Assembly: GCA_945873115.1 (NCBI GenBank)
Contig: CAMCBT010000001.1
Coordinates: forward strand, 1 to 64,000
Source: an uncultured Mitsuokella sp.
GTDB lineage: Bacteria; Bacillota; Negativicutes; Selenomonadales; Selenomonadaceae
Direction: 5' to 3'
DNA: 64,000 nucleotides
The notes under the pieces: model-generated
Seen by the model: only the letters and a program-made list of their open reading frames with translations
Database searches by the model: none
Told to the model about the DNA's origin: nothing
Made by a program: the position numbers and the translations under genes
In this document: one piece after another, positions 6,883 to 35,127 of the stretch
Layout of the letters: the number at the start of each line of letters is the position of its first letter
Position numbering within the stretch: the stretch's first letter is position 1

Positions 6883-7071
6883 ATGGATAACATGAGCATT
6901 GCCGCGGCCTCTGTCGGGATGAATCAGGGACAGGTCATGCAGCAGTTCGGCGTCGGCGTCCTGAAGATGGCGATGAATTCGGAGGCTCAGGGTACGGAGG
7001 CACTTCTGGAGTCACTGCCCCAGGAGAGCCTCGACCCGAATCTCGGCAAGAGCGTCGACATCCAGGCGTAA
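6883..7071 (+). CDS. YjfB-like putative motility protein
   Basis: This 62-residue protein begins MDNMSIAAASVGMNQGQV and has an amphipathic helical centre (VLKMAMNSEAQGTEALLESL), ending LDPNLGKSVDIQA. This is the pattern of the short YjfB family annotated as putative motility proteins, found in flagellated Firmicutes and often under the flagellar sigma factor. The biochemical function is not known. GGAGG at 6871-6875 gives a seven-base spacing to the ATG. The upstream sigma-28-like promoter supports co-expression with late flagellar genes. Confidence 0.7.
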   Translation: MDNMSIAAASVGMNQGQVMQQFGVGVLKMAMNSEAQGTEALLESLPQESLDPNLGKSVDIQA

Positions 7072-7090
7072 TACGTTGTGAGCTAGGTAC

Positions 7091-7252
7091 GTTCCGTGTC
7101 CCCTCGCTCACCCTATCTCCGCTTTGCTGACCTGTCCAAGAAGACAGCCATAGGCTGGCTGATTGGCTAACAGGTGGCATGCGAAAGCGTCCCAAGATCG
7201 ATAGTGATTGGCTGACGCTGACTGCTAAAGGGTTCGCGAGGGGGACACGAAC
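7091..7252. repeat. 162-bp intergenic inverted-repeat element, family A
   Basis: The left arm (7091-7114) and right arm (7229-7252) are inverted copies agreeing at about 21 of 25 aligned positions. Inside lie two direct copies of a (C/G)TGATTGGCT(A/G)A motif (about 7159-7171 and 7204-7215). The right arm matches 1000-1024. No ORF is visible, so the element looks like a small non-autonomous palindromic repeat or MITE. It occupies most of the 7072-7337 gap; the remainder is an AT-rich stretch before the hrcA promoter. Confidence 0.65.
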
Positions 7253-7337
7253 ATACTATGTAACAAAATCAATTCTTTCAGTTAAAAGGCTGGAAGAATT
7301 TTTTTTACAATTTATTTGACTTTTTGACATTTAGCCA

Positions 7338-7366
7338 TTGACTTTTTGTTTTTTTCGTTGTATAGT
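7338..7366 (+). promoter_or_regulatory. sigma-A promoter of the hrcA heat-shock operon
   Basis: TTGACT (7338-7343) and TATAGT (7361-7366) have a 17-base spacer, immediately upstream of the CIRCE operator, so a bound HrcA would block transcription initiation or early elongation. Confidence 0.8.
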
Positions 7367-7382
7367 CTTTATAGATTTGAAG

Positions 7383-7409
7383 TTAGCACTCGGCTAACCA
7401 GAGTGCTAA
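7383..7409 (+). promoter_or_regulatory. CIRCE operator (HrcA binding site)
   Basis: TTAGCACTC (7383-7391), a nine-base spacer, and GAGTGCTAA (7401-7409) match the CIRCE consensus perfectly. It lies between the promoter and the hrcA start and also falls in the mRNA leader. It is the only CIRCE seen in the window, consistent with one regulated transcript for hrcA-grpE-dnaK and possibly dnaJ. Confidence 0.97.
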
Positions 7410-7433
7410 CAATGAGAAAGGAGGGGAGAGCGG

Positions 7434-8468
7434 ATGGCTGGGGAGCTTGACGAGCGCAAGCAGCGCGTACTCAGGGCAGTCATCGACGATTATATCCAGT
7501 CGGCGGAGCCCGTGGGCTCCAGGACACTAGCCCGGCGGTACGACCTGGGGGTGAGCCCCGCCACCATACGAAATGAGATGGCGGATCTCGAGATGCTGGG
7601 ATATCTTCGCCATATCCACACCTCCTCCGGCCGCATCCCCTCCTCAAAGGGGTATCGGTTCTACGTGGATGGGCTAATCCCTCCCGCGCCGGTGGGTGCG
7701 GAGGAGCGGGCCTGCATCGATGCCTGGTATCGGAAGCGGGTAAAGCGCATTGATGAGGTCTTTCAGGAGACGGCACGTCTCATCGCGGAAATCACGAAGA
7801 ACGTGGCCATCGTCCTGGCACCCCAGATGACAAAGGCGCGGTTCCATTGCCTGCAGTTCCTTCCCCTGGATCGGGAGCGGGTCGTCGCCGTTCTCATGAC
7901 GGATGCGGGCTTTGTGGAGAACAAGATTATCCACATGCCGGCGGGCTCCTCCTTTTCCGATTTTCAGCGGATGTCCTCCTTTATCAATGAAAGGCTGGCG
8001 GGCAGAGCTCTTGCAGAGATCACCCGGGGCGCCTTCCGGGAGCTCCACGAGGCGATGGGGGATGAGGCCATCTTCGAGGCGGCCTTCTCCGTCATCGAGC
8101 GGGCGCTGGACGACACGAAGGAAGAGCGGCTGTATCTAGGCAGCACTACCCACATGCTGGACCAGCCCGAATACCACGATGTGGAGCGGGTCAAGGAGGT
8201 CCTGCTTCTCCTGGAGGAGCAGGAGCTGGTGAAGGATATCCTCCATGCACACATGGGGGAAGGGCTGGAGGTCACCATCGGGCAGGAAAATGACAACGAC
8301 CATTTCAAGGAGTCGAGCCTGATTACCGCCACCTACCATCTCCACGGGGAGCTCCTGGGCACCATAGCCGTCATGGGGCCGACCCGGATGGAGTACGCAA
8401 AGGCCATGAGCCTGCTGGAGTATATGAATGACAACCTGACGAACGTCATACGGCGTTTGGAATGGTAG
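7434..8468 (+). CDS. hrcA: heat-inducible transcription repressor HrcA
   Basis: This 344-residue repressor binds CIRCE and needs GroEL to stay active, so misfolded protein titrates the chaperone and derepresses the operon. The N-terminal winged-helix domain shows ERKQRVLRAVIDDYIQSAEPVGS and GVSPATIRNEMADLEMLGYL, followed by the SSGRIPSSKGYRFYVD signature, then a GAF-like dimerisation region ending EYAKAMSLLEYMNDNL. The perfect CIRCE 25 bases upstream shows autoregulation. Start: GAGGGGAGAG directly before the ATG. Confidence 0.96.
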   Translation: MAGELDERKQRVLRAVIDDYIQSAEPVGSRTLARRYDLGVSPATIRNEMADLEMLGYLRHIHTSSGRIPSSKGYRFYVDGLIPPAPVGAEERACIDAWYRKRVKRIDEVFQETARLIAEITKNVAIVLAPQMTKARFHCLQFLPLDRERVVAVLMTDAGFVENKIIHMPAGSSFSDFQRMSSFINERLAGRALAEITRGAFRELHEAMGDEAIFEAAFSVIERALDDTKEERLYLGSTTHMLDQPEYHDVERVKEVLLLLEEQELVKDILHAHMGEGLEVTIGQENDNDHFKESSLITATYHLHGELLGTIAVMGPTRMEYAKAMSLLEYMNDNLTNVIRRLEW

Positions 8469-24204: not shown

Positions 24205-27200
24205 ATGAAAAAGACGGAACTTGCCAAAAGAATTACAAGCTGCCTGACACTCGGTGTATTCTCCACGCAGTCCCTCCTTGCTTTTGCTGCAGAAATCCTC
24301 CCAGACAACAATGCTCCTGTTGAGGAGCGTCCGCTGGTGATGGAAACGGCAAACGGGATTCCCCTTGTCCATATCACGGACCCGACAGCGGGCGGAGTCT
24401 CCGTCAACCATTACGAATTCTTCAATGTCCCGGAACGGGGAGCCATCCTCAACAACAGCTTTGATCTCGTCTCTACGCAGCTGGCGGGATACGTACAAGG
24501 CAATCCGAATCTTATAAGCGGCACAGCCCATGTCATTGTAAACGAGGTGACAAGCGCAAATCCCTCGGAACTCCGAGGCTTCCTGGAGGTCGCAGGAAAC
24601 AAAGCCGACATCGTCATAGCCAATCCCAACGGGATTTTGGCAGACGGTGCCGGTTTTTTGAATACCGCAAGAGTCATCCTTGCCACTGGGCGCACGGAGC
24701 TGGATGGATCAGGCAATCTGGCATCGTTGCGCGTAGATAGTGGAAATATCGTTGTAGCGGGCAAAGGCCTCAATGGCCTGGGCGCGGACTCTGCCGAGCT
24801 CTATGCGCGGGCCATCGAGGTCAATGCCGGCCTTTGGGCAAAGGATGCGAAGATCGTCACCGGGACGAATGTCATCGGTTACGGAGATGGTGTCATATCT
24901 CCCAGCGAAGAGAAGGGAGACGCTCCTGCCTATGCCTTGGACGTAGCTGAAATCGGCGGGATGTACGCGAACCGCATCACGCTCATTGGGACGGAAAAGG
25001 GAGTCGGTGTCAATCTCCAGGGGCAGATAACGAGCACCCAGGCGACCTCCCTTGATGTGAACGGAAACCTGAAGACCGCCGGAAATCTATACTCGGATGG
25101 GAATACCTCCCTTCAGGCCGAGACTGTAGAAAACAGCGGGAAGATCATCAGCAATGGAAATACAGAGATCCGGGCAGAGACGGTTGTCAATAAAGGTGGA
25201 GCGGTATACGGGAATGAGATTTCCATCCAGGCGGAGAAGCTCGTCAACGAAAAGAATGCTGCCCTGGAATCCCGTCTGGCCGAAGAGATGGCCGTGCTGA
25301 AAGAGAAGTCCGACACCCTGGAAGCGGCTCATAAGGAAGATGTGACGCGATTCACAAACGCAGGCGCGGAAGCGTCCTATCGACGGAATATCGAAGCGGC
25401 GGAACGGGCCTATGATGCCCAGCTGAAAATCGTAGAGGATATCAAGAAAGAGCTCGCAGCGCATCCAGCAAGCGCGATTGCCGCGAGACAAAAGCTTTCC
25501 GTAGATGCAGGCACAATCCGCAATTCGGGGGACTCGCTTCTGTACGCTGGAGAGGACATGGACTTGTCTGTCCGAAAGAAGCTGATAAACAATGGGGCGC
25601 AAATCGAGGCAAAGGGCAGTATCCGCATTGCTGCGCCCGTGACGCAGAATGAAAATGCCGCCTTTTCTGCGAAACGGGTCATCACGAAAATACAGGAAAA
25701 CCCGACAAAGCTGCGCATCGATGAGGGCGGCCATAGCGAGCAGGGACAGGCCTTTCCGGAGTGGGAATTTACCGAAAAGGACAGCGGCTACGGCGCAATC
25801 CACAGCGCAGCTCCTGGAGAGAAAATCAATCATTTTACAGTCGTTCGGAGCCATTCAATTCTCTCCGAGGAACAAGTGCAATCCTCCCTTCCCGGCAGTA
25901 TCCGGGCAGGCAGAGACATCCTTCTGGACGGAACTGTTGAAAACGAGGACAGCCGCGTCGTGGCAGGCGGAACCCTGCAGGCGACAGGACCCGTCCATAA
26001 CACGGCCACAATGCAGCAGGAGATGGCAGTCACCTTCGGGACGGTCCAGCCCAGCTATACGGAACGAAGAAACTGGCTCCACAAGGGAAAGGTGCGAAAG
26101 TATGGCGACAGCTCCTACATGACACCGGAAATCGCAAAGAGCAATCCGTCGCCCCTAGGCATCCAGCTTTATGCAGACAGCAAGGATGACCTCGCCAAAC
26201 AGGCGGATATTACAGCAAAGGAGCGGGAGCGCGTACAGAGTGCCCTTTCTCCCTTCGGGCTTGTTCCAATGGCCTCGGGCCAAGGAGAGCAGCCAGGACA
26301 GGTGGGGAGTTTTTCTATCAGCGCACTCTATCGTGTTCATCCAGAAGCTACGGCAAAGTACCTCGTCGAGACAGATCCCGCCTTCACCAGCAAAAGGAAA
26401 TTTCTTTCCTCCGACTACATGTATCGCCAGCTGAAGTGGGATATGGACAAAGTCCCCAGGCGGATAGGCGACGGCTTCTATGAGCAGCAGCTTTTGGCCG
26501 ACCAGATTCTCCGGCAGACAGGCAAGCGTCATCTCGAAGGCTATGAAGATGACGAAGAGGCGTACAAAGCTCTTATGGATGCGGGGGTGGCATACGCCAA
26601 AGAAGTGAACCTCGCTCCCGGCATCGCCCTCTCAAAGGAGCAGGCCACAGCACTCACCCGCGATATGATATGGCTGGAGGAACGGGAAGTCACTTTGAAT
26701 GGCAAGAGGGAACGGGGGATATATCCTGTCCTTTATAGCAGAAATGCAAAGGGCTTGCGTCTCTCAGAGGGAGGCAGCCTCATATCGGCGAAGAATCTTG
26801 TCCTTGAGACGAAGGAAGGCCTCACAAATGCAGGAACCCTCTACGGCGAAAGCATTCAGGCAGCAGCAGGAAATATTGAAAATACAGGTCAGATTCTTGG
26901 GCAAAACATCAATCTAAGCTCCGGGAAGGATATCCAGGTGCAGGGCTCCATCCTTGGAGATAAGAATGTCCTCTTGGAAGCAAAAGGGGATATCGCCGTC
27001 AAGAGCACCACGGAACGCCTTGCTCATCAGGATGTGCTCAATACTACAGCCGGGATTTCCGTCACGGGGGATGGAGGCCGCCTGGTGATGAACGCAGGGA
27101 AAAATCTGGGGCTGGCAGGTGCGACGCTCATGGCCTCCGGAGAAAAAGGCAAGATCCAGCTAGCTGCTGGACAGGATGCAATCCTATCGACGAAGAAGCT

Positions 27201-30099
27201 TCAAAGCGATAAGGACATGACGGCAAGTGCGGAGAATTACCTGCGCACGAAGCGCGGCACGGAGCTAGGGACGAAAATCCATGCAGATGGGGATATCACG
27301 ATTTCCTCAGGAAACGATATCGTGGCAAGGGCAGCGATAGTCAGCAGCGAGGAGGGAACCGTCTCCCTTGCAGCGGGGAATGACATTGCCTTGGAAGCCG
27401 GGCGGGAGACAGCGGAGGATCACTATGGAATCCAGTATAAGGGCAGCGGGCTTCTCTCGACGAAGACCACCACAATCCGCTCAGATGCCGAGATGGATAC
27501 AGCCCGTACAACCGACATCACCGGGAAGAACGTCAGTCTTTCTGCCAAGCGTGACATAGCCCTCTCTGTGGCCAATATCGTGGCGGACAAGGAAGCATCT
27601 GTCGATGCCGGACGGGATTTTTCGGCCGCATCCGCCGAAAATCATTCCCATACAGAAAACCATAAGGCCGTCAAGAAATCCGGGATCCTCTCCTCGGGCG
27701 GGATCGGCTTTATGATTGGGACGCAAGAAACAAAGACGACTCGGGACAGGGATTCCATGACCCAGCAGGGCACGAATATCGCTGCGCTTGATGGGAGCGT
27801 CTCCGTCAATGCAGAAGGAAAAGCCCATATCTCCTCCAGCAACATCCTTGCGGGGAAGGATGCAACCCTCTCGGCAAAGGAAATCACAATCGATGGGAAG
27901 GACAACGTCTATCGCGATATTCTCACACAGGAGGAGAAGACAACAGGCCTGACCATAAGCTTCGGGGCGGGACTCCTCGACCTGGGGCAGGAAATCTACA
28001 CGCCTATCAAGCGCATGGGCGAGGTTCGGGATGACCGGCTCAAAGCCCTGTATGCCTACCAGGCAGGACGGATCCTACACGATGAATTCTCGGCAGGAAA
28101 TCCCCTGACAGATAAATCCATATCGCTCCATATCGGCCTAGGAACAAGCCAATCCTATAGCCGTACGGAGAATATCCAAAAGGAATATGCGGGCAGTCAG
28201 ATTACCGCAGGAGAGAATGCAAGCCTCACTGCAAAAGAGAAGGATCTGACGGTCAAGGGCAGCAACGTAGCAGGAAGGGATGTTTCCCTTGCAGCACAAG
28301 GCAATGTGCGTCTGGAAGCGGGAGAGGATACAAGCATAACCACCACGGAGGATAGATATAGCTCGGCGGGGCTCGGTGCAGCTTTTTTCCCACAGGGGCT
28401 ATCCGGCCTCAGCCTTCATGCAAACAAAGGACAGGGAGACAGCAGGGAAGCCGTCACCACCTACACGCCAAGCCGCGTATCTGCAGAGAAAAACCTTTGC
28501 CTCTCCGCCGGAAAAGACGTGGACGTCATCGGAAGCAAGGTACAGGGAAGTCAAATAGCGGCAAAGGTCGGCGGCAACTTGCATATCGAGACCCTGCAGG
28601 ACAAGGAGACCTATAGAGAGCAGAACACCTCCGCAGGGATAGGGGTATCCTGGAGTCTTCATGGGGGTGCCTTCTCCAAGCCTACCTTCGGCGGGGACTG
28701 GAGCAAGGGAAATATCGACTCCCACTATCGCAGTGCAAGGGAGCAGGCAGGCTTCTATGCAGGAAAAGACGGCTTTGATATCTATGTCCAGGGGAACACC
28801 AACCTGAAGGGAGGAATGCTAGCCAGCGAAGCCTCTGCGGACAAGAATCATCTGTCCACAGGGACATTCTCTTTCAGCGACCTGGAAAATAAGGCAGACT
28901 ACAGCGCGATAGGCATCGGTGCGTCCTATCATGCGTACGGCGACTACGACAAGATGAAGCCGAACGCGAAAAACAAGATCTACAACACCATAGGCCTTGC
29001 GCCGAATCTTTCCATGCCCGCCATGGGGAAGGCGGATAGCAGCACGAAATCTGCTGTTGCTCCTGGCAGGATAGACATCCGAGAGAATCCCACGCAGGAT
29101 GTCTCTGTCCTGAGCCGTGACACAAGAAATGCGCTGAATGAGCTGGGCAGAATTTTCGACAAGAAGACGGTGGAGGAGCAGCAGGAACTTGCCCGCGTCT
29201 TCGGCGAGGAAGCCTTCCGCCTCGCCCACAACCTCCGGGACGATGGCAGCGGCAGAAAGATTGCAGTCCATGCTATCATCGGCGGAATCATGAGCCAGAT
29301 CACGGGAACAGGGGTTGCATCTGGAGCGATAGGTGCAGGAGTGAATGAGGCTGTCATTGGTGAGATAAAGAAAATTAAAGACCCGGGAATGGCACAAATC
29401 GTCAGTACGATTGTCGGTGCTGCATCAGCCAAGCTGATAGGAAAAAGTGCAGGTTCTGGTATCGTATCAGCGGTAGGTGGAACAAAGTGGAATTATCTGG
29501 CAGAGGATCATGTTCCAGTTACAATTGGCATTAGTGTGAAAGATGCTGGATTGGGGCATGTGGGAATTGTTGTCGAGACAGATACGGGAGCTTATGACTC
29601 AGCTGATTATGGGCGATATGGTACGGATGTCGTAGAGAGCAGTAGTGGCTTTGCCGCCCCGATTGGTCAGGGAACGGTTATTACACGATGGTTCTATGAT
29701 CCAACAGGTAAATACACCTATATGCTAAATCCAGAATATGTAAATCCTGAAGAAACGGTAAATGCATATAACGACTGGATAAAAAGCAACGGCTATTTAC
29801 AGATTCCCATAGACCAAACAACGAATTATTTTGGAGAAGCCTGGGATGAAAGTATCAACCAAAATACACAATATTATAGAAACGGTGAAGAGGACTATAA
29901 TCTTTTAAGCAATAACTGTGCTACAACTACCAGAGATGCCATCATACAAGGTACGGTATATAAAGCACTAAGTCCTGAGGCTGCAATAACTATAGAGCGG
30001 CTACGGAATGAATTCAATCCTTCAACTATTCGGGAAATCCTAGAAGAAGATTTGATTGAATTTCAAGGAAAGGGATTAGTGGTGGGACGTGCTTTTTGA
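24205..30099 (+). CDS. TpsA/CdiA-like filamentous hemagglutinin exoprotein with variable C-terminal tip
   Basis: The 1964-residue protein is predicted to cross the outer membrane by two-partner secretion. After a signal peptide (about residues 1-30, LTLGVFSTQSLLAFAAE), the TPS domain shows NPNLI (100-104) and NPNGI (140-144), which define the family. Next come a helical Ala/Glu-rich stretch (about 350-440), a central FHA block with LTRDMIWLEEREVTL near 816, and long beta-helix repeats to about 1690. A Gly-rich pre-toxin segment (HAIIGGIMSQITG) leads to the junction GTKWN at 1759-1763. The last 200 residues differ in base use (AT-rich) and form the tip. The downstream gene order A-I-orphan-B resembles Burkholderia CDI loci. 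An adhesin without toxin activity cannot be excluded. Confidence 0.88.
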   Translation: MKKTELAKRITSCLTLGVFSTQSLLAFAAEILPDNNAPVEERPLVMETANGIPLVHITDPTAGGVSVNHYEFFNVPERGAILNNSFDLVSTQLAGYVQGNPNLISGTAHVIVNEVTSANPSELRGFLEVAGNKADIVIANPNGILADGAGFLNTARVILATGRTELDGSGNLASLRVDSGNIVVAGKGLNGLGADSAELYARAIEVNAGLWAKDAKIVTGTNVIGYGDGVISPSEEKGDAPAYALDVAEIGGMYANRITLIGTEKGVGVNLQGQITSTQATSLDVNGNLKTAGNLYSDGNTSLQAETVENSGKIISNGNTEIRAETVVNKGGAVYGNEISIQAEKLVNEKNAALESRLAEEMAVLKEKSDTLEAAHKEDVTRFTNAGAEASYRRNIEAAERAYDAQLKIVEDIKKELAAHPASAIAARQKLSVDAGTIRNSGDSLLYAGEDMDLSVRKKLINNGAQIEAKGSIRIAAPVTQNENAAFSAKRVITKIQENPTKLRIDEGGHSEQGQAFPEWEFTEKDSGYGAIHSAAPGEKINHFTVVRSHSILSEEQVQSSLPGSIRAGRDILLDGTVENEDSRVVAGGTLQATGPVHNTATMQQEMAVTFGTVQPSYTERRNWLHKGKVRKYGDSSYMTPEIAKSNPSPLGIQLYADSKDDLAKQADITAKERERVQSALSPFGLVPMASGQGEQPGQVGSFSISALYRVHPEATAKYLVETDPAFTSKRKFLSSDYMYRQLKWDMDKVPRRIGDGFYEQQLLADQILRQTGKRHLEGYEDDEEAYKALMDAGVAYAKEVNLAPGIALSKEQATALTRDMIWLEEREVTLNGKRERGIYPVLYSRNAKGLRLSEGGSLISAKNLVLETKEGLTNAGTLYGESIQAAAGNIENTGQILGQNINLSSGKDIQVQGSILGDKNVLLEAKGDIAVKSTTERLAHQDVLNTTAGISVTGDGGRLVMNAGKNLGLAGATLMASGEKGKIQLAAGQDAILSTKKLQSDKDMTASAENYLRTKRGTELGTKIHADGDITISSGNDIVARAAIVSSEEGTVSLAAGNDIALEAGRETAEDHYGIQYKGSGLLSTKTTTIRSDAEMDTARTTDITGKNVSLSAKRDIALSVANIVADKEASVDAGRDFSAASAENHSHTENHKAVKKSGILSSGGIGFMIGTQETKTTRDRDSMTQQGTNIAALDGSVSVNAEGKAHISSSNILAGKDATLSAKEITIDGKDNVYRDILTQEEKTTGLTISFGAGLLDLGQEIYTPIKRMGEVRDDRLKALYAYQAGRILHDEFSAGNPLTDKSISLHIGLGTSQSYSRTENIQKEYAGSQITAGENASLTAKEKDLTVKGSNVAGRDVSLAAQGNVRLEAGEDTSITTTEDRYSSAGLGAAFFPQGLSGLSLHANKGQGDSREAVTTYTPSRVSAEKNLCLSAGKDVDVIGSKVQGSQIAAKVGGNLHIETLQDKETYREQNTSAGIGVSWSLHGGAFSKPTFGGDWSKGNIDSHYRSAREQAGFYAGKDGFDIYVQGNTNLKGGMLASEASADKNHLSTGTFSFSDLENKADYSAIGIGASYHAYGDYDKMKPNAKNKIYNTIGLAPNLSMPAMGKADSSTKSAVAPGRIDIRENPTQDVSVLSRDTRNALNELGRIFDKKTVEEQQELARVFGEEAFRLAHNLRDDGSGRKIAVHAIIGGIMSQITGTGVASGAIGAGVNEAVIGEIKKIKDPGMAQIVSTIVGAASAKLIGKSAGSGIVSAVGGTKWNYLAEDHVPVTIGISVKDAGLGHVGIVVETDTGAYDSADYGRYGTDVVESSSGFAAPIGQGTVITRWFYDPTGKYTYMLNPEYVNPEETVNAYNDWIKSNGYLQIPIDQTTNYFGEAWDESINQNTQYYRNGEEDYNLLSNNCATTTRDAIIQGTVYKALSPEAAITIERLRNEFNPSTIREILEEDLIEFQGKGLVVGRAF
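28417..29285 (+). repeat. 869-bp direct repeat, copy 1 (inside tpsA)
   Basis: By direct comparison this segment appears identical base for base to 31202-32070, offset 2785. It encodes TpsA residues from His1405 to just before the tip. After 29285 the two copies diverge gradually but stay co-linear, with the same 2785 offset, up to the GTK codons at 29479-29487, then become unrelated. Confidence 0.95.
29491..30096 (+). other. C-terminal effector (toxin) domain 1 of TpsA, permuted papain-like
   Basis: TpsA residues about 1764-1964. The motif GLGHVGIVVE contains His1785 and SNNCATTTRDAI contains Cys1905. A His-first, Cys-later order with a small-residue run after an NNC motif is the arrangement of circularly permuted papain-fold enzymes (NlpC/P60-like, LRAT, PPPDE, DUF4105-like). 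A Tyr- and Asp-rich middle separates them. Peptidase, amidase or acyltransferase activity is inferred, not shown. The domain is AT-rich and absent from the second cassette, as expected for an exchangeable tip. Confidence 0.5.
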
Positions 30100-30110
30100 G
30101 GTATAAGTCA

Positions 30111-31187
30111 ATGGTATCTACGCATAAATGTAAAATAATAGTCATTTTCTTATTGCTTGCTGTATTTTTTATCTTCTGGATTATCAAGGCAGGATTTCAA
30201 TATTACACGGATCAAACCCGGTATTCAGGAACCATTATAGGCCAATATTTAAAAACAGTGCATCCATCATTCATCCTCCAGAATCCCAACAATCCAAAAG
30301 AAAAAGTTGATATTGTTCTTACCATGTTCTTTCAAGAAGAAGATCGGGTAATATCGCCTGTGCTTGTGTCAGAGGGGCTTTACTTTATTCTGACAAAATG
30401 GTACGAAGAAGAACCGCCTCGAATTATGTTTCTTAACGAAAATTCTTTAAAGGAAATAAACATTAAGTGGCCTGAGAATATATCAGATTTCTATGTGAAA
30501 AAAATATACGTTTATGACCAAAAAATATATCTGGCATTGCTTGCCAAAAATTATGGGATTCCCGATAGGATTTATGTTGTTTCTAAAACTGGTGGTATTG
30601 CCAGAGAGGTTTGCGATAATGTAGATCTCCATAGTCATGGAGATTCTAGCGCACAAATGGATGGCGTTCCTATCCAATATAGGGACGGGTTAATTTGTTA
30701 TAGCTGGGATGATCCAAGTATCGAATTTGTAAATGAGGAAAGAGAAGAGAAGTTGTTTTCACTGCCAGTAGGAACTGCCATGTTGATGAAAGGTTGGTAT
30801 GAGGAAGGCAAGAGCCTTCTGCTATGGAGTGAAAATCCAAATTATGGAATTGTAGTGGATTTAAAGGGGGAAGTTTTATTTGAGATATATCGTTCCTTGT
30901 TTTGGGGAACTAGTAGTTGGGATGTATATGGAAATGTGGATAACGCCATTCTCTTGAAATCCATGTCTATCAGAGATTATGATTATGTACCAGGTATTGA
31001 TAAATTATATTTTTTACGTCGGGAAAATATAAAACACTTTGATTCTGGTATATACGATGTTAGTACAGGCAATATGATTCCGTTACACTGGAAAAACATC
31101 ATTTCCCCAAAGGGGTGGGCGAAAGTCGATTATGACAAGGAATATTTTGACAGTTTATCCAATTCTGCTAAGGCAGAAATACGGTGA
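30111..31187 (+). CDS. membrane-anchored protein, candidate immunity protein for tip 1
   Basis: This is a 358-residue product with no recognised family. A basic N-terminus (STHKCK) precedes one transmembrane helix (IIVIFLLLAVFFIFWIIKAG), then a large domain of about 320 residues rich in Trp, Tyr and short beta-like segments (GLYFILTKWYEE, RIYVVSKTGGI), recalling a beta-propeller. The positive-inside rule puts that domain in the periplasm. Position directly after the tip, separate reading frame and strong AT bias are typical of CDI immunity genes. GAGG at 30098-30101 supports the ATG at 30111; a TTG at 30096 overlapping the tpsA stop is an alternative. At 358 residues it is large for an immunity protein. 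Confidence 0.55.
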   Translation: MVSTHKCKIIVIFLLLAVFFIFWIIKAGFQYYTDQTRYSGTIIGQYLKTVHPSFILQNPNNPKEKVDIVLTMFFQEEDRVISPVLVSEGLYFILTKWYEEEPPRIMFLNENSLKEINIKWPENISDFYVKKIYVYDQKIYLALLAKNYGIPDRIYVVSKTGGIAREVCDNVDLHSHGDSSAQMDGVPIQYRDGLICYSWDDPSIEFVNEEREEKLFSLPVGTAMLMKGWYEEGKSLLLWSENPNYGIVVDLKGEVLFEIYRSLFWGTSSWDVYGNVDNAILLKSMSIRDYDYVPGIDKLYFLRRENIKHFDSGIYDVSTGNMIPLHWKNIISPKGWAKVDYDKEYFDSLSNSAKAEIR

Positions 31188-32764
31188 TTATACTGATCCC
31201 CCATGCAAACAAAGGACAGGGAGACAGCAGGGAAGCCGTCACCACCTACACGCCAAGCCGCGTATCTGCAGAGAAAAACCTTTGCCTCTCCGCCGGAAAA
31301 GACGTGGACGTCATCGGAAGCAAGGTACAGGGAAGTCAAATAGCGGCAAAGGTCGGCGGCAACTTGCATATCGAGACCCTGCAGGACAAGGAGACCTATA
31401 GAGAGCAGAACACCTCCGCAGGGATAGGGGTATCCTGGAGTCTTCATGGGGGTGCCTTCTCCAAGCCTACCTTCGGCGGGGACTGGAGCAAGGGAAATAT
31501 CGACTCCCACTATCGCAGTGCAAGGGAGCAGGCAGGCTTCTATGCAGGAAAAGACGGCTTTGATATCTATGTCCAGGGGAACACCAACCTGAAGGGAGGA
31601 ATGCTAGCCAGCGAAGCCTCTGCGGACAAGAATCATCTGTCCACAGGGACATTCTCTTTCAGCGACCTGGAAAATAAGGCAGACTACAGCGCGATAGGCA
31701 TCGGTGCGTCCTATCATGCGTACGGCGACTACGACAAGATGAAGCCGAACGCGAAAAACAAGATCTACAACACCATAGGCCTTGCGCCGAATCTTTCCAT
31801 GCCCGCCATGGGGAAGGCGGATAGCAGCACGAAATCTGCTGTTGCTCCTGGCAGGATAGACATCCGAGAGAATCCCACGCAGGATGTCTCTGTCCTGAGC
31901 CGTGACACAAGAAATGCGCTGAATGAGCTGGGCAGAATTTTCGACAAGAAGACGGTGGAGGAGCAGCAGGAACTTGCCCGCGTCTTCGGCGAGGAAGCCT
32001 TCCGCCTCGCCCACAACCTCCGGGACGATGGCAGCGGCAGAAAGATTGCAGTCCATGCTATCATCGGCGGCATCATGAGCCAGATTACAGGAGCAGGATT
32101 TGTCTCTGGCGCGATAGGTGCAGGGATAAATGAAGCAATTATCCGTGAAATAAAAAAGATAAGAGATCCAGGGACTGCACAAATTGTAAGTGCAATTTTG
32201 GGGGGCGCGTCTGCAAGGATAAGTCACAGTAATGTCATGGGAGGAAGTTTGGCTGCAATTATAGGAACAAAGGAAAACGCATATGGTGAACGTCCTACTT
32301 ATGATGGAGCAATCATATATGTCAATGAAATAGGATATTTTAAAATAGAAAATGGTATAGATGTTTATTTGCCGAATGGTGTACCAGAAAACGTATACGT
32401 ATGGTTGCAAGACCCAGAGAATCCAAATTTTGGCTGGGATTATAAAAAAGGAGATGGAAAGGGGAGCGGGGATCGATATACAGATAAAGTAGTAGTCTAT
32501 CAAGTATATACAGTAATTGATGGAAAAGCCTATGGTATCGCAATTTTAGACGATACGAAAGCAGAGAAAAAAGAAAGAATTAATCAAGAGGCTAAGCTGT
32601 ATATGGAGGCGATAGTTGCAGCGAGCAATTCTGGCATTGCCAAGGAGTTGATGGATTTTGCAAAACAATATAACGAAGCACCGCAAGAGGCGAGTTATGA
32701 TGGTATACAGAATGAATTATTCATGCAGGTGCTCAACTATATAAAGAATCTATATGAGAGGTAA
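31184..32764 (+). CDS. orphan TpsA/CdiA C-terminal cassette carrying a second tip
   Basis: The open frame of 526 residues begins at a GTG that overlaps the stop of the preceding gene by four bases, but it lacks a signal peptide and TPS domain. From 31202 on it repeats TpsA residues 1405 onward: 869 bp exact, then divergent but co-linear to GTKEN at 32264-32278. The last 160 residues are a different tip with blocks AIIYVNEIGYFKIENG, NVYVWLQDPENPNFGWDY and a Lys/Glu-rich helical end. I recognise no family for it. This is the layout of displaced cdiA-CT/rhs orphan modules, silent until recombined onto the full gene. Confidence 0.75.
   Translation: MIILIPHANKGQGDSREAVTTYTPSRVSAEKNLCLSAGKDVDVIGSKVQGSQIAAKVGGNLHIETLQDKETYREQNTSAGIGVSWSLHGGAFSKPTFGGDWSKGNIDSHYRSAREQAGFYAGKDGFDIYVQGNTNLKGGMLASEASADKNHLSTGTFSFSDLENKADYSAIGIGASYHAYGDYDKMKPNAKNKIYNTIGLAPNLSMPAMGKADSSTKSAVAPGRIDIRENPTQDVSVLSRDTRNALNELGRIFDKKTVEEQQELARVFGEEAFRLAHNLRDDGSGRKIAVHAIIGGIMSQITGAGFVSGAIGAGINEAIIREIKKIRDPGTAQIVSAILGGASARISHSNVMGGSLAAIIGTKENAYGERPTYDGAIIYVNEIGYFKIENGIDVYLPNGVPENVYVWLQDPENPNFGWDYKKGDGKGSGDRYTDKVVVYQVYTVIDGKAYGIAILDDTKAEKKERINQEAKLYMEAIVAASNSGIAKELMDFAKQYNEAPQEASYDGIQNELFMQVLNYIKNLYER
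31202..32070 (+). repeat. 869-bp direct repeat, copy 2 (orphan cassette)
   Basis: Apparently exact copy of 28417-29285 in the same reading frame. It begins with CATGCAAACAAAGG right after the 3' end of the first immunity gene, and the first mismatch at its right end is at 32071 (C for A). Confidence 0.95.
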
Positions 32765-32771
32765 TTTTATT

Positions 32772-33237
32772 ATGCTAGATGTGTTCCTTCCTGATTTTTA
32801 TCGATGCGTGCAGGCAATATCATATTTTTTTATAGTATTTCTATTTCTTTGTGTATGCTTTCGATTTAATATTAAATTTTTCATGTTGAAAGATGTAAAA
32901 TTTACCTCGTATTTAAAAAAAATGTTGACAATTTATTTTTTTACATGCGTATCGAGTTTTTTTTATATCATATATAGAGAAACGAGCTGGGGCCAGACGG
33001 ATTTTCTTGGATTTTTTTTTGCTGTTGTATCTGATGTGATGTTGATAAGCACAATATTTGACTGGACAAAGAAACATGGATGTAAAAAAAATCACACAGC
33101 TTATCTTACTCGTGCTATATATTAGCGCAGATTTATTTCGAATAGGAGGAGGGAATCATAAAGAAATCATTTTTTTGACATTATGTCTATGGGGATATTT
33201 TTTGTATAGACTTTACCCACCGACTGAATCCAAATGA
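32772..33237 (+). pseudogene. small multi-pass membrane protein, candidate immunity gene 2, frameshifted at an A8 tract
   Basis: The first frame runs from ATG 32772 to 33125 (117 residues) with three transmembrane helices (ISYFFIVFLFLCVCF, TIYFFTCVSSFFYIIY, GFFFAVVSDVMLIST). An A8 tract at 33084-33091 is followed in another frame by KITQLILLVLYISADLF and EIIFLTLCLWGYFLYRLY, two further hydrophobic helices, to a TGA at 33235-33237. Removing one A would join them into a 154-residue protein with about five helices. It directly follows the orphan tip, as an immunity gene should. Alternatively the second part is a separate 53-residue gene from ATG 33076. A sequencing error in the tract is also possible. 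Confidence 0.55.
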
Positions 33238-33254
33238 GTATGATATATGCAATC

Positions 33255-33376
33255 TTGTTGCTGAAACAGGAAATATGATTCCATTACATTGGTAAAACAT
33301 CATTTCGCAAAGGAGTGGACGAAAGTCGAATAATTTGAAAGTTTATCCAATGTTGCAGAGGAAAACATACGATGAT
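33255..33376 (+). pseudogene. decayed remnant of an immunity-1-like 3' end
   Basis: This noncoding stretch is clearly related to the last 120 or so bases of the immunity gene at 31065-31187: it shares GGAAATATGATTCC, AAAACATCATTTC, GACGAAAGTCGA and AGTTTATCCAAT in the same order. It has an in-frame stop (TGG TAA in place of TGG AAA) and indels. It lies immediately upstream of tpsB. The surrounding 33238-33453 gap holds no other gene that I can see. Confidence 0.75.
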
Positions 33377-33453
33377 AGTATGGTAGAATGCTTGTATTCG
33401 TCATTCCAACTGGGACAGGCGGATATTGTTTTTTGGAAGCTAAAGGGGGAGCT

Positions 33454-35127
33454 TTGAGACATATCATCATTTTAGTAGCTTTGTTGTTCGCTCTTTCCGT
33501 TCTTTTTTCTTCATCTGTATCAAATGCTGCACCGATACAGCAAGAGCAGCTTGATCAGTCCCGGATACAAGAGGAAGAGAGACATGAACGAATAAATCAG
33601 AAACGCGCGGAGATTGACATGCCATCAGACTCTTCTAAAACGATTTCTGATGATGAGGCAGATGTCCATATATTCATAGGCAAAATTATCGTCAAAAATG
33701 AGGGGAAGAAGTTTCCTTTTCTGGACAATGTCACACGAGGATATGAGGGGCGGGAGCTTTCGTTAAAAGATATCAATGAGGTCGTCAACAGGATGAATCG
33801 AGAACTGCTGAAGCGTGGCTTTTCGACAAGTCGTGTTGTCATCCCGGAGCAGAATCTTTCGAATGGGGAGTTGCGTCTTGTCCTGCAGATTGGTCGTATT
33901 CATGAGATTCGATTTGCAGAAGGGAGTGATATCCTCTATACAGGGAATCTCTTTCCGTTTCGCGAGGGCGATATTCTGAATGTGCGGGATATCGAGCAGG
34001 GGCTGGAGCAGGCAAAACGGCTGCCTTCGCAGGATATTACCGTGAAACTGCTGCCCGCACAGGAACCACAGATGACGGATATCGTGGTCACGGTGTCGCG
34101 CGGCAGGAATGTTTACGGCACGATTTCGATGGATGATTCCGGCCTTGAGGATACGGGAAAGCTTCAATTCTATGGGAGCGTCGGCGTGGATCAAATATTC
34201 CAGCGAAATGATATCCTGCGTATTGGCATGAATCTTGATGGAGCGCAGGATGGCTACATCAAGGGAACCCGTGGACACCATATCAGCTATACGATTCCGT
34301 ATGGGAATCACACCTTCACGCTTTCCTACCAGCGGTCGAAATACCACCAGATCGTGGAAAGCAATCCATACGATTTCATCAGTGCAGGAGATACGAATAT
34401 TTCGATGTTTTCCTGGGACTATGTGCTTCATCGTACGGCAAGCCGGAAGACGAGTATGGATCTGCGGCTCCGAAAGAGGAATTCCCATAGCTTTATCAAC
34501 AATGTGGAGCTTCCTATACAGGCAATGCACCAGACTTCACTGGAGCTGGGATATGCAGAGCGGCTGTACATGGGGCGGGATACCTTTTATTTCCGGTTGG
34601 CACATCGCTTTGGACTCGGGTGGCTGGGTGCACAGGAGGAAAAGACGTATCCCTTGGCACCGAAGACGCGCTATCGCTTATGGGTCTTTGATGCAGACTA
34701 TGTCCATCCCTTTACCCTTGGAAATCGGCCTGCTGTATTTACATCATCCTTTCATGGGCAGTATGCGATGAACGGAGTGAGGCTCTATGGAGTGGACATG
34801 ATCAGCATGGGCAACCGATATACGGTACGCGGCTTCGATGGTGAGGTGACTCTCATGGGGACGAACGGATGGTATCTTCGAAATGAGCTTGCTACGAAGT
34901 TTCCCAAGCAAAAGATGGAGCTTTATCTTGGGCTGGACATTGGCGCTGTATATGGGGATGGATCCAATCTATACAATGGGCGCATGATTGCAGGCTCAGT
35001 CCTTGGCCTTCGGGGAGCGGTAGGGAACGTCTTCTATGATGTATTCGTTGCAGCACCTATAGAGAAGCCCGCAGGTTTTCACACATCCGGCAGCACAGGA
35101 GGATTTACTCTCGGTGTAAAGTTTTGA
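33454..35127 (+). CDS. TpsB-family outer-membrane transporter (FhaC/ShlB/CdiB type)
   Basis: This is the two-partner secretion pore for TpsA. After a signal peptide (IIILVALLFALSVLFSSSVSNAA) comes a charged N-terminal helix (QQEQLDQSRIQEEERHERIN). Two POTRA domains follow (about VHIFIGKIIVKNEG to VTVSRGRN), then a 16-strand-type beta barrel with the conserved loop motif YTVRGFDGE and a C-terminal Phe (GFTLGVKF). The frame opens at ATG 33388 (579 residues), but the residues before the signal are unconvincing. TTG 33454 (557 residues) starts at the signal peptide, though its AAGGGGGAG site is only two to three bases away, so the start is uncertain. tpsB placed last in the locus is unusual. Confidence 0.9.
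   Translation: MRHIIILVALLFALSVLFSSSVSNAAPIQQEQLDQSRIQEEERHERINQKRAEIDMPSDSSKTISDDEADVHIFIGKIIVKNEGKKFPFLDNVTRGYEGRELSLKDINEVVNRMNRELLKRGFSTSRVVIPEQNLSNGELRLVLQIGRIHEIRFAEGSDILYTGNLFPFREGDILNVRDIEQGLEQAKRLPSQDITVKLLPAQEPQMTDIVVTVSRGRNVYGTISMDDSGLEDTGKLQFYGSVGVDQIFQRNDILRIGMNLDGAQDGYIKGTRGHHISYTIPYGNHTFTLSYQRSKYHQIVESNPYDFISAGDTNISMFSWDYVLHRTASRKTSMDLRLRKRNSHSFINNVELPIQAMHQTSLELGYAERLYMGRDTFYFRLAHRFGLGWLGAQEEKTYPLAPKTRYRLWVFDADYVHPFTLGNRPAVFTSSFHGQYAMNGVRLYGVDMISMGNRYTVRGFDGEVTLMGTNGWYLRNELATKFPKQKMELYLGLDIGAVYGDGSNLYNGRMIAGSVLGLRGAVGNVFYDVFVAAPIEKPAGFHTSGSTGGFTLGVKF

What the first reader, a model, noticed from the sequence alone, without database searches (positions are those of the whole stretch)
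33084..33091. A8 tract splits the second candidate immunity gene
The frame from 32772 reads through three membrane helices, then shifts at eight consecutive A residues. The alternative frame continues with two more membrane helices to 33237. With seven A residues the gene would be a continuous 154-residue protein. A homopolymer in an immunity gene next to a silent toxin could be decay, a phase-variable switch, programmed slippage or a sequencing error.
Basis: partly seen in the sequence, partly recalled or inferred. Interest (0 to 1): 0.55.

Follow-up and report, generated by a model that had tools for sequence, protein, structure and literature searches.

The report
Broken immunity gene in orphan toxin module
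A run of eight A's splits what is probably a membrane protein that protected a bacterium from a spare toxin parked behind its contact-inhibition-type toxin gene; the simplest reading is ordinary gene decay rather than a genetic switch.

Summary
The A8 tract (33084-33091) and the frame change across it are real. The surroundings are a two-partner-secretion (CdiBA-like) locus: tpsA, an immunity-like gene, then an orphan toxin module sharing 1,022 bp with tpsA at 96% identity (about 800 bp at 99-100%), the split gene, a broken 3' remnant of another immunity-like gene, and tpsB. The upstream frame is surely coding (0 of 3,000 shuffles stay open). The downstream frame is only suggestive (4.5% of shuffles), but its stop falls within about 30 bp of where the remnant begins, where a module should end. 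No homologue of the split protein was found in 380 genomes of the class, so the decisive comparison failed. The tract is not special: the gene is 30% GC with seven A/T runs of 7 or more, explained mainly by its codons, and five of five A8/T8 runs checked in ordinary genes of this contig are in frame. A sister species' orphan immunity gene is broken too; the Dialister relative's membrane immunity gene is also split near an A run. Best reading: a one-base slip in a weakly selected orphan immunity gene (about 50%). Rivals: naturally shorter protein, sequencing error, slippage or phase switch.

The parts
24205..30099 (+). tpsA: large CdiA/FHA-like secreted protein, 1964 aa
   Evidence: PF05860 TPS E 4.6e-46, PF13332 hemagglutinin repeat E 1.2e-47
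30096..31187 (+). imm1: candidate immunity protein of the main module, 363 aa, one N-terminal membrane helix
   Evidence: overlaps the tpsA stop; relatives in a sister species; no family match
28408..29429 (+). tpsA copy of the repeated segment
   Evidence: 979 of 1022 bases identical to 31193-32214; 99-100 of 100 identical per block from 28500 to about 29300
31184..32764 (+). orphan toxin fragment, 526 aa: repeated tpsA segment followed by a different C-terminal toxin region (32273-32764)
   Evidence: toxin region has relatives in the class
32772..33125 (+). imm2, first frame: 117 aa, three hydropathy peaks; AGAGG ten bases before the ATG
33084..33091 (+). A8 tract where the reading frame changes
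33076..33237 (+). second frame: 53 aa from ATG 33076, two weak hydropathy peaks; no good ribosome site upstream
33236..33376 (+). broken 3' remnant of an imm1-like gene; BLAST-supported from 33266, protein-level similarity perhaps from 33212
   Evidence: 76% identity over 124 alignment columns to 31065-31188 with 13 gap columns; in-frame stop
33388..35127 (+). tpsB: outer-membrane transporter partner
   Evidence: PF03865 ShlB E 3e-92, POTRA domains

Best explanation
The gene is the immunity gene of a displaced (orphan) CdiA-CT-like module. Such modules are pushed behind the main toxin gene by recombination between the shared segments. Once displaced, the immunity gene is under weak selection; replication slippage at one of its many A/T runs changed the length of the 33084-33091 tract by one base, cutting off the last two membrane helices. 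Shown: locus anatomy, repeat, tract, two open frames, neighbouring remnant. Inferred: that both frames once made one protein, that the change is a mutation in the genome, and that the product is now inactive.
For: Orphan layout and 1,022-bp shared segment. The second frame stops at 33235-33237, within about 30 bp of where the next remnant begins (33212-33266), whereas the first stop would leave roughly 90-140 bp unaccounted for. Decay is common here: the downstream remnant has a stop and gaps; sister species G001 has an orphan imm1-like gene split by a frame change and carrying a TAG behind a toxin fragment with 1 TGA and 2 TAA. The relative in Dialister succinatiphilus (named) has a membrane immunity gene also split in frame near A6/A7 runs. 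ATG 33076 has only GGA upstream. In the passages read, orphan modules are described as remnants displaced by new insertions (PMC6336857).
Against: The downstream frame is only borderline as an open frame (135 of 3,000 shuffles), and base-composition scores do not favour it (0.3 bits; the same model picks the true frame in only 14 of 32 windows of imm1, so it is uninformative). No homologue shows an intact long form. The toxin frame of the same module is intact and about 800 bp of the repeat is 99-100% identical to tpsA, so the module looks recent, which gives little time for decay. In E. coli EC93, orphan immunity is expressed and works (PMC3150448 passages), arguing that such genes can be kept.
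Confidence: 0.5

Rival explanations
1. The gene is whole as it stands: a 117-residue three-helix immunity protein ending at 33125, and the downstream open frame is chance or a separate small overlapping gene.
For: Membrane proteins next to related toxins can be short: 93 aa in L028, and an open piece of 124-125 aa in L029. Chance openness of the second frame is 4.5% for that frame and 12% for any frame. In the GeneTack study, singleton frame changes without homologues are expected to be one third gene overlaps (PMC3711429 passages).
Against: The second frame's stop lies at the module boundary; ATG 33076 has a poor ribosome site; L029's own gene is probably longer than its second piece.
Confidence: 0.23
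2. Sequencing or assembly error in the homopolymer; the real gene is intact.
For: The genome is a 109-contig draft and homopolymers are classic error sites (general knowledge); no reads are available here.
Against: Five of five A8/T8 runs checked in ordinary genes of the contig (those in open frames of 200 codons or more, out of seven runs of 8 outside imm2 in 104 kb) are in frame with Pfam hits. The T9, T8 and other A8 runs in the same gene keep its frame.
Confidence: 0.15
3. The tract is a slippage device: RNA-polymerase slippage or replication slippage (phase variation) yields some full-length protein.
For: The gene is rich in runs of 8 or more (P 0.047 against synonymous shuffles), and a second related module (Dialister) also has its membrane immunity gene split near an A run.
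Against: Eight is below the nine at which selection against slippage appears in many genomes (PMC1088944 passages); transcription slips at runs are mostly insertions and in E. coli deletions were rarely at runs (PMC5574713 passages); A8/T8 runs sit in five ordinary genes here; the Dialister frame change goes the other way; no conserved site and no strain data.
Confidence: 0.09

Closest known systems
Orphan cdiA-CT/cdiI modules of CDI loci (E. coli EC93, EC869; Acinetobacter)
   Same: Toxin fragment sharing sequence with the upstream tpsA, followed by a small immunity-like gene, behind the main toxin and its immunity gene; remnants accumulate downstream.
   Different: Host is of another class (the relatives found that have names are a Veillonellaceae bacterium, a Dialister and a Bacillota bacterium); no VENN motif; tpsB follows the array; immunity gene split; toxin and immunity of unknown families.
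Pore-forming CdiA-CT of E. coli EC93 (a CDI toxin that dissipates proton motive force; passages)
   Same: Possible likeness only: a short helical toxin tail beside a membrane protein.
   Different: No sequence match was found; the activity here is unknown.
Frameshifted genes at A runs rescued by transcriptional slippage ('pseudo pseudogenes', PMC1088944 passages)
   Same: A frame break at an A run that slippage could bridge.
   Different: Eight not nine; no conserved site, no homologue, no expression evidence.

Membership tests
CDI / two-partner-secretion polymorphic toxin (CdiBAI-like) | TPS secretion domain and hemagglutinin repeats in a large exoprotein | tested here: met
   PF05860, PF13332
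CDI / two-partner-secretion polymorphic toxin (CdiBAI-like) | ShlB/FhaC-type partner transporter | tested here: met
   PF03865, POTRA
CDI / two-partner-secretion polymorphic toxin (CdiBAI-like) | Variable C-terminal region after a conserved segment, with adjacent small gene | tested here: met
CDI / two-partner-secretion polymorphic toxin (CdiBAI-like) | VENN motif before the toxin region | tested here: not met
   absent from tpsA and from the orphan fragment; so I call it CdiBA-like, not a proven CDI system
CDI / two-partner-secretion polymorphic toxin (CdiBAI-like) | Contact-dependent inhibition and specific immunity | not testable with these tools
   needs competition assays
Orphan toxin/immunity module | Toxin fragment without the N-terminal TPS domain, sharing sequence with the upstream gene | tested here: met
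   979 of 1022 bases identical; Pfam finds PF13332 and a sub-threshold DUF637 hit, no TPS domain
Programmed slippage / phase-variable gene | Site conserved in homologues or variable between clones | tested here: inconclusive
   no homologue found; no strain data

The most novel reading that the evidence does not exclude
Membrane immunity genes of orphan toxin modules in this bacterial class may be kept off or low by frame breaks at A runs that slip back, so that spare modules stay dormant but can be re-armed when recombination joins the toxin to tpsA. Two modules with related toxin regions (this one and Dialister's) both show a split membrane gene near an A run.
Probability: 0.05. Interest if true: 0.6.

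Novelty: new member of a known kind. Interest (0 to 1): 0.15.

Why it matters
It adds an example, outside the Proteobacteria of the papers read, of an orphan toxin module beside its two-partner-secretion locus, with a repeat about 800 bp long that is 99-100% identical and could still recombine. If the immunity gene is really broken, a recombinant showing the second toxin would lack self-protection, which bears on whether orphan modules are a usable reserve or debris. The A8 itself teaches little.

Tried and rejected
Homologues of imm2: first-frame protein in 189 family genomes (2 of 189 matched: itself and a stop-filled chance match), viral contigs, plasmids; read-through protein in 380 class genomes (1 of 380, itself) and phages; second frame in viral contigs.

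Toxin region: none in viral contigs or plasmids and none in genome contigs with the single protein; 3 named loci in genome contigs with the alignment, at least two of them (L043, L044) copies of loci already held. In class genomes 12 of 380 matched, one of them the window itself and one (G173) an AAA-ATPase-like chance match (the name is my reading). The profile of the tail gave 5 of 380; in the phylum 5 of 398, one the window itself and four weak (E 0.003-0.009); three of those four loci (L052-L054) were looked at and show ordinary genes, such as what looks like an aspartokinase in L052 (my reading).

Likeness of imm2 to the membrane proteins beside related toxins: I saw a similar layout by eye with Dialister's, but alignment scores are at shuffle level, BLASTP finds nothing, and hydropathy correlation is 0.52 against a block-shuffled mean of 0.46 (P 0.28). 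Rejected.

Coding bias by frame: uninformative. Toxin model: mean pLDDT 64, no PDB match at E 0.001 or better. Pfam, NCBIfam and PADLOC gave nothing above cut-off for imm1, imm2 or the toxin tail (NCBIfam was not run on the toxin tail alone).

Full report
Observation. The A8 at 33084-33091 is in the sequence. The frame from 32754/32772 ends at 33125, and the next frame is open to 33237. Read across the tract it gives 154 residues.

Locus. tpsA (24205-30099) carries PF05860 and PF13332; tpsB (33388-35127) carries PF03865 and POTRA domains. Between them lie imm1 (30096-31187), an orphan toxin fragment (31184-32764), the split gene and a broken remnant of the 3' end of an imm1-like gene. The orphan fragment repeats 1,022 bp of tpsA with 979 identical bases, and blocks from 28500 to about 29300 are 99-100% identical, so the duplication or conversion looks recent. 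There is no VENN motif. The tpsA-derived segment is found in 3 of 3 genus genomes searched, the window's own included; further modules lie in contig C15 of the same genome.

Toxin relatives. The toxin region (32273-32761) matches 12 of 380 class genomes, itself included and one chance match included. In most of the others the shared part ends before a different toxin; in L027, L028 and L029 a short tail ends the protein. L028 and L029 are followed by small membrane proteins (93 aa; an open piece of 124-125 aa) and L027 by a 270-aa protein with two membrane helices. These membrane proteins are not detectably similar to imm2.

Is imm2 one protein? For: the second stop lies within about 30 bp of where the next remnant begins, and ATG 33076 has a poor ribosome site while ATG 32772 has AGAGG. 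Against or neutral: openness of the second frame happens in 135 of 3,000 shuffles; frame bias is uninformative; no homologue was found. I put about 75% on one original protein.

Is the tract special? The gene is at 30% GC in a 55% GC window and holds seven of the 43 runs of 7 or more found in 104 kb. Dinucleotide shuffles expect 0.96, but synonymous-codon shuffles give 5.6, so the protein's residues and codons explain most of it; runs of 8 or more are slightly in excess (P 0.047). Five of five A8/T8 runs tested in ordinary genes (5-FTHF cyclo-ligase, pseudouridine synthase, an RlmN-like radical SAM protein, RsgA, a tetrapyrrole methylase by Pfam) are in frame. So A8 is neither avoided nor systematically misread here. 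The other two runs of 8 outside imm2 (7299, 21528) lie in no open frame of 200 codons and were not tested.

Decay nearby. The remnant after imm2 has a stop and gaps. In sister species G001 an orphan imm1-like gene is split by a frame change and has a TAG, and the toxin fragment before it has three stops. Dialister's related module has a membrane gene split near A6/A7 runs; the frame change goes in the other direction, and the same 600 bp is found in both copies held, which may be one assembly. Not all orphan genes decay: C15 modules in this genome keep open immunity-like frames of 165 and 196 aa.

Literature (passages only). Orphan modules behind cdiA are common, their toxin fragments generally lack start signals, and their immunity gene can be expressed and functional (PMC3150448); in Acinetobacter they are called remnants displaced by insertion (PMC6336857). 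Selection against A/T runs appears at nine in a large share of genomes (PMC1088944). Transcription slips at runs are mainly insertions (PMC5574713). Singleton frame changes without homologues are expected to be one third overlaps, the rest errors and indels (PMC3711429).

Verdict. Most likely a one-base slip in an orphan immunity gene under weak selection. Shorter natural protein, sequencing error and slippage remain open in that order. The one tension worth keeping is that the toxin is intact and its repeat nearly perfect while its immunity gene looks broken.

Noticed in passing
28408-29429 and 31193-32214: Direct repeat of 1,022 bp, 96% identical overall and 99-100% identical for about 800 bp; recombination across it would delete imm1 and join the second toxin to tpsA.
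   Followed up: partly
33236-33376: Broken 3' remnant of an imm1-like immunity gene between imm2 and tpsB, evidence of an earlier module.
   Followed up: yes
L029:1680-2140 (Dialister succinatiphilus): Membrane protein gene beside a related toxin tail is split in frame near A6/A7 runs; the first frame ends GGA AAA AAA TGA.
   Followed up: partly
L038 reverse complement 6940-8000 (sister species G001): Orphan imm1-like gene broken by a frame change and a TAG.
   Followed up: partly
L039 (G000 contig C15): Second two-partner-secretion locus in the same genome with several modules and what looks like a shortened tpsB (237 aa).
   Followed up: no
32273-32600: The toxin region's first 80 to 110 residues recur in other proteins of the class before different toxins; possibly a shared pre-toxin or entry domain with no Pfam model found.
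   Followed up: partly
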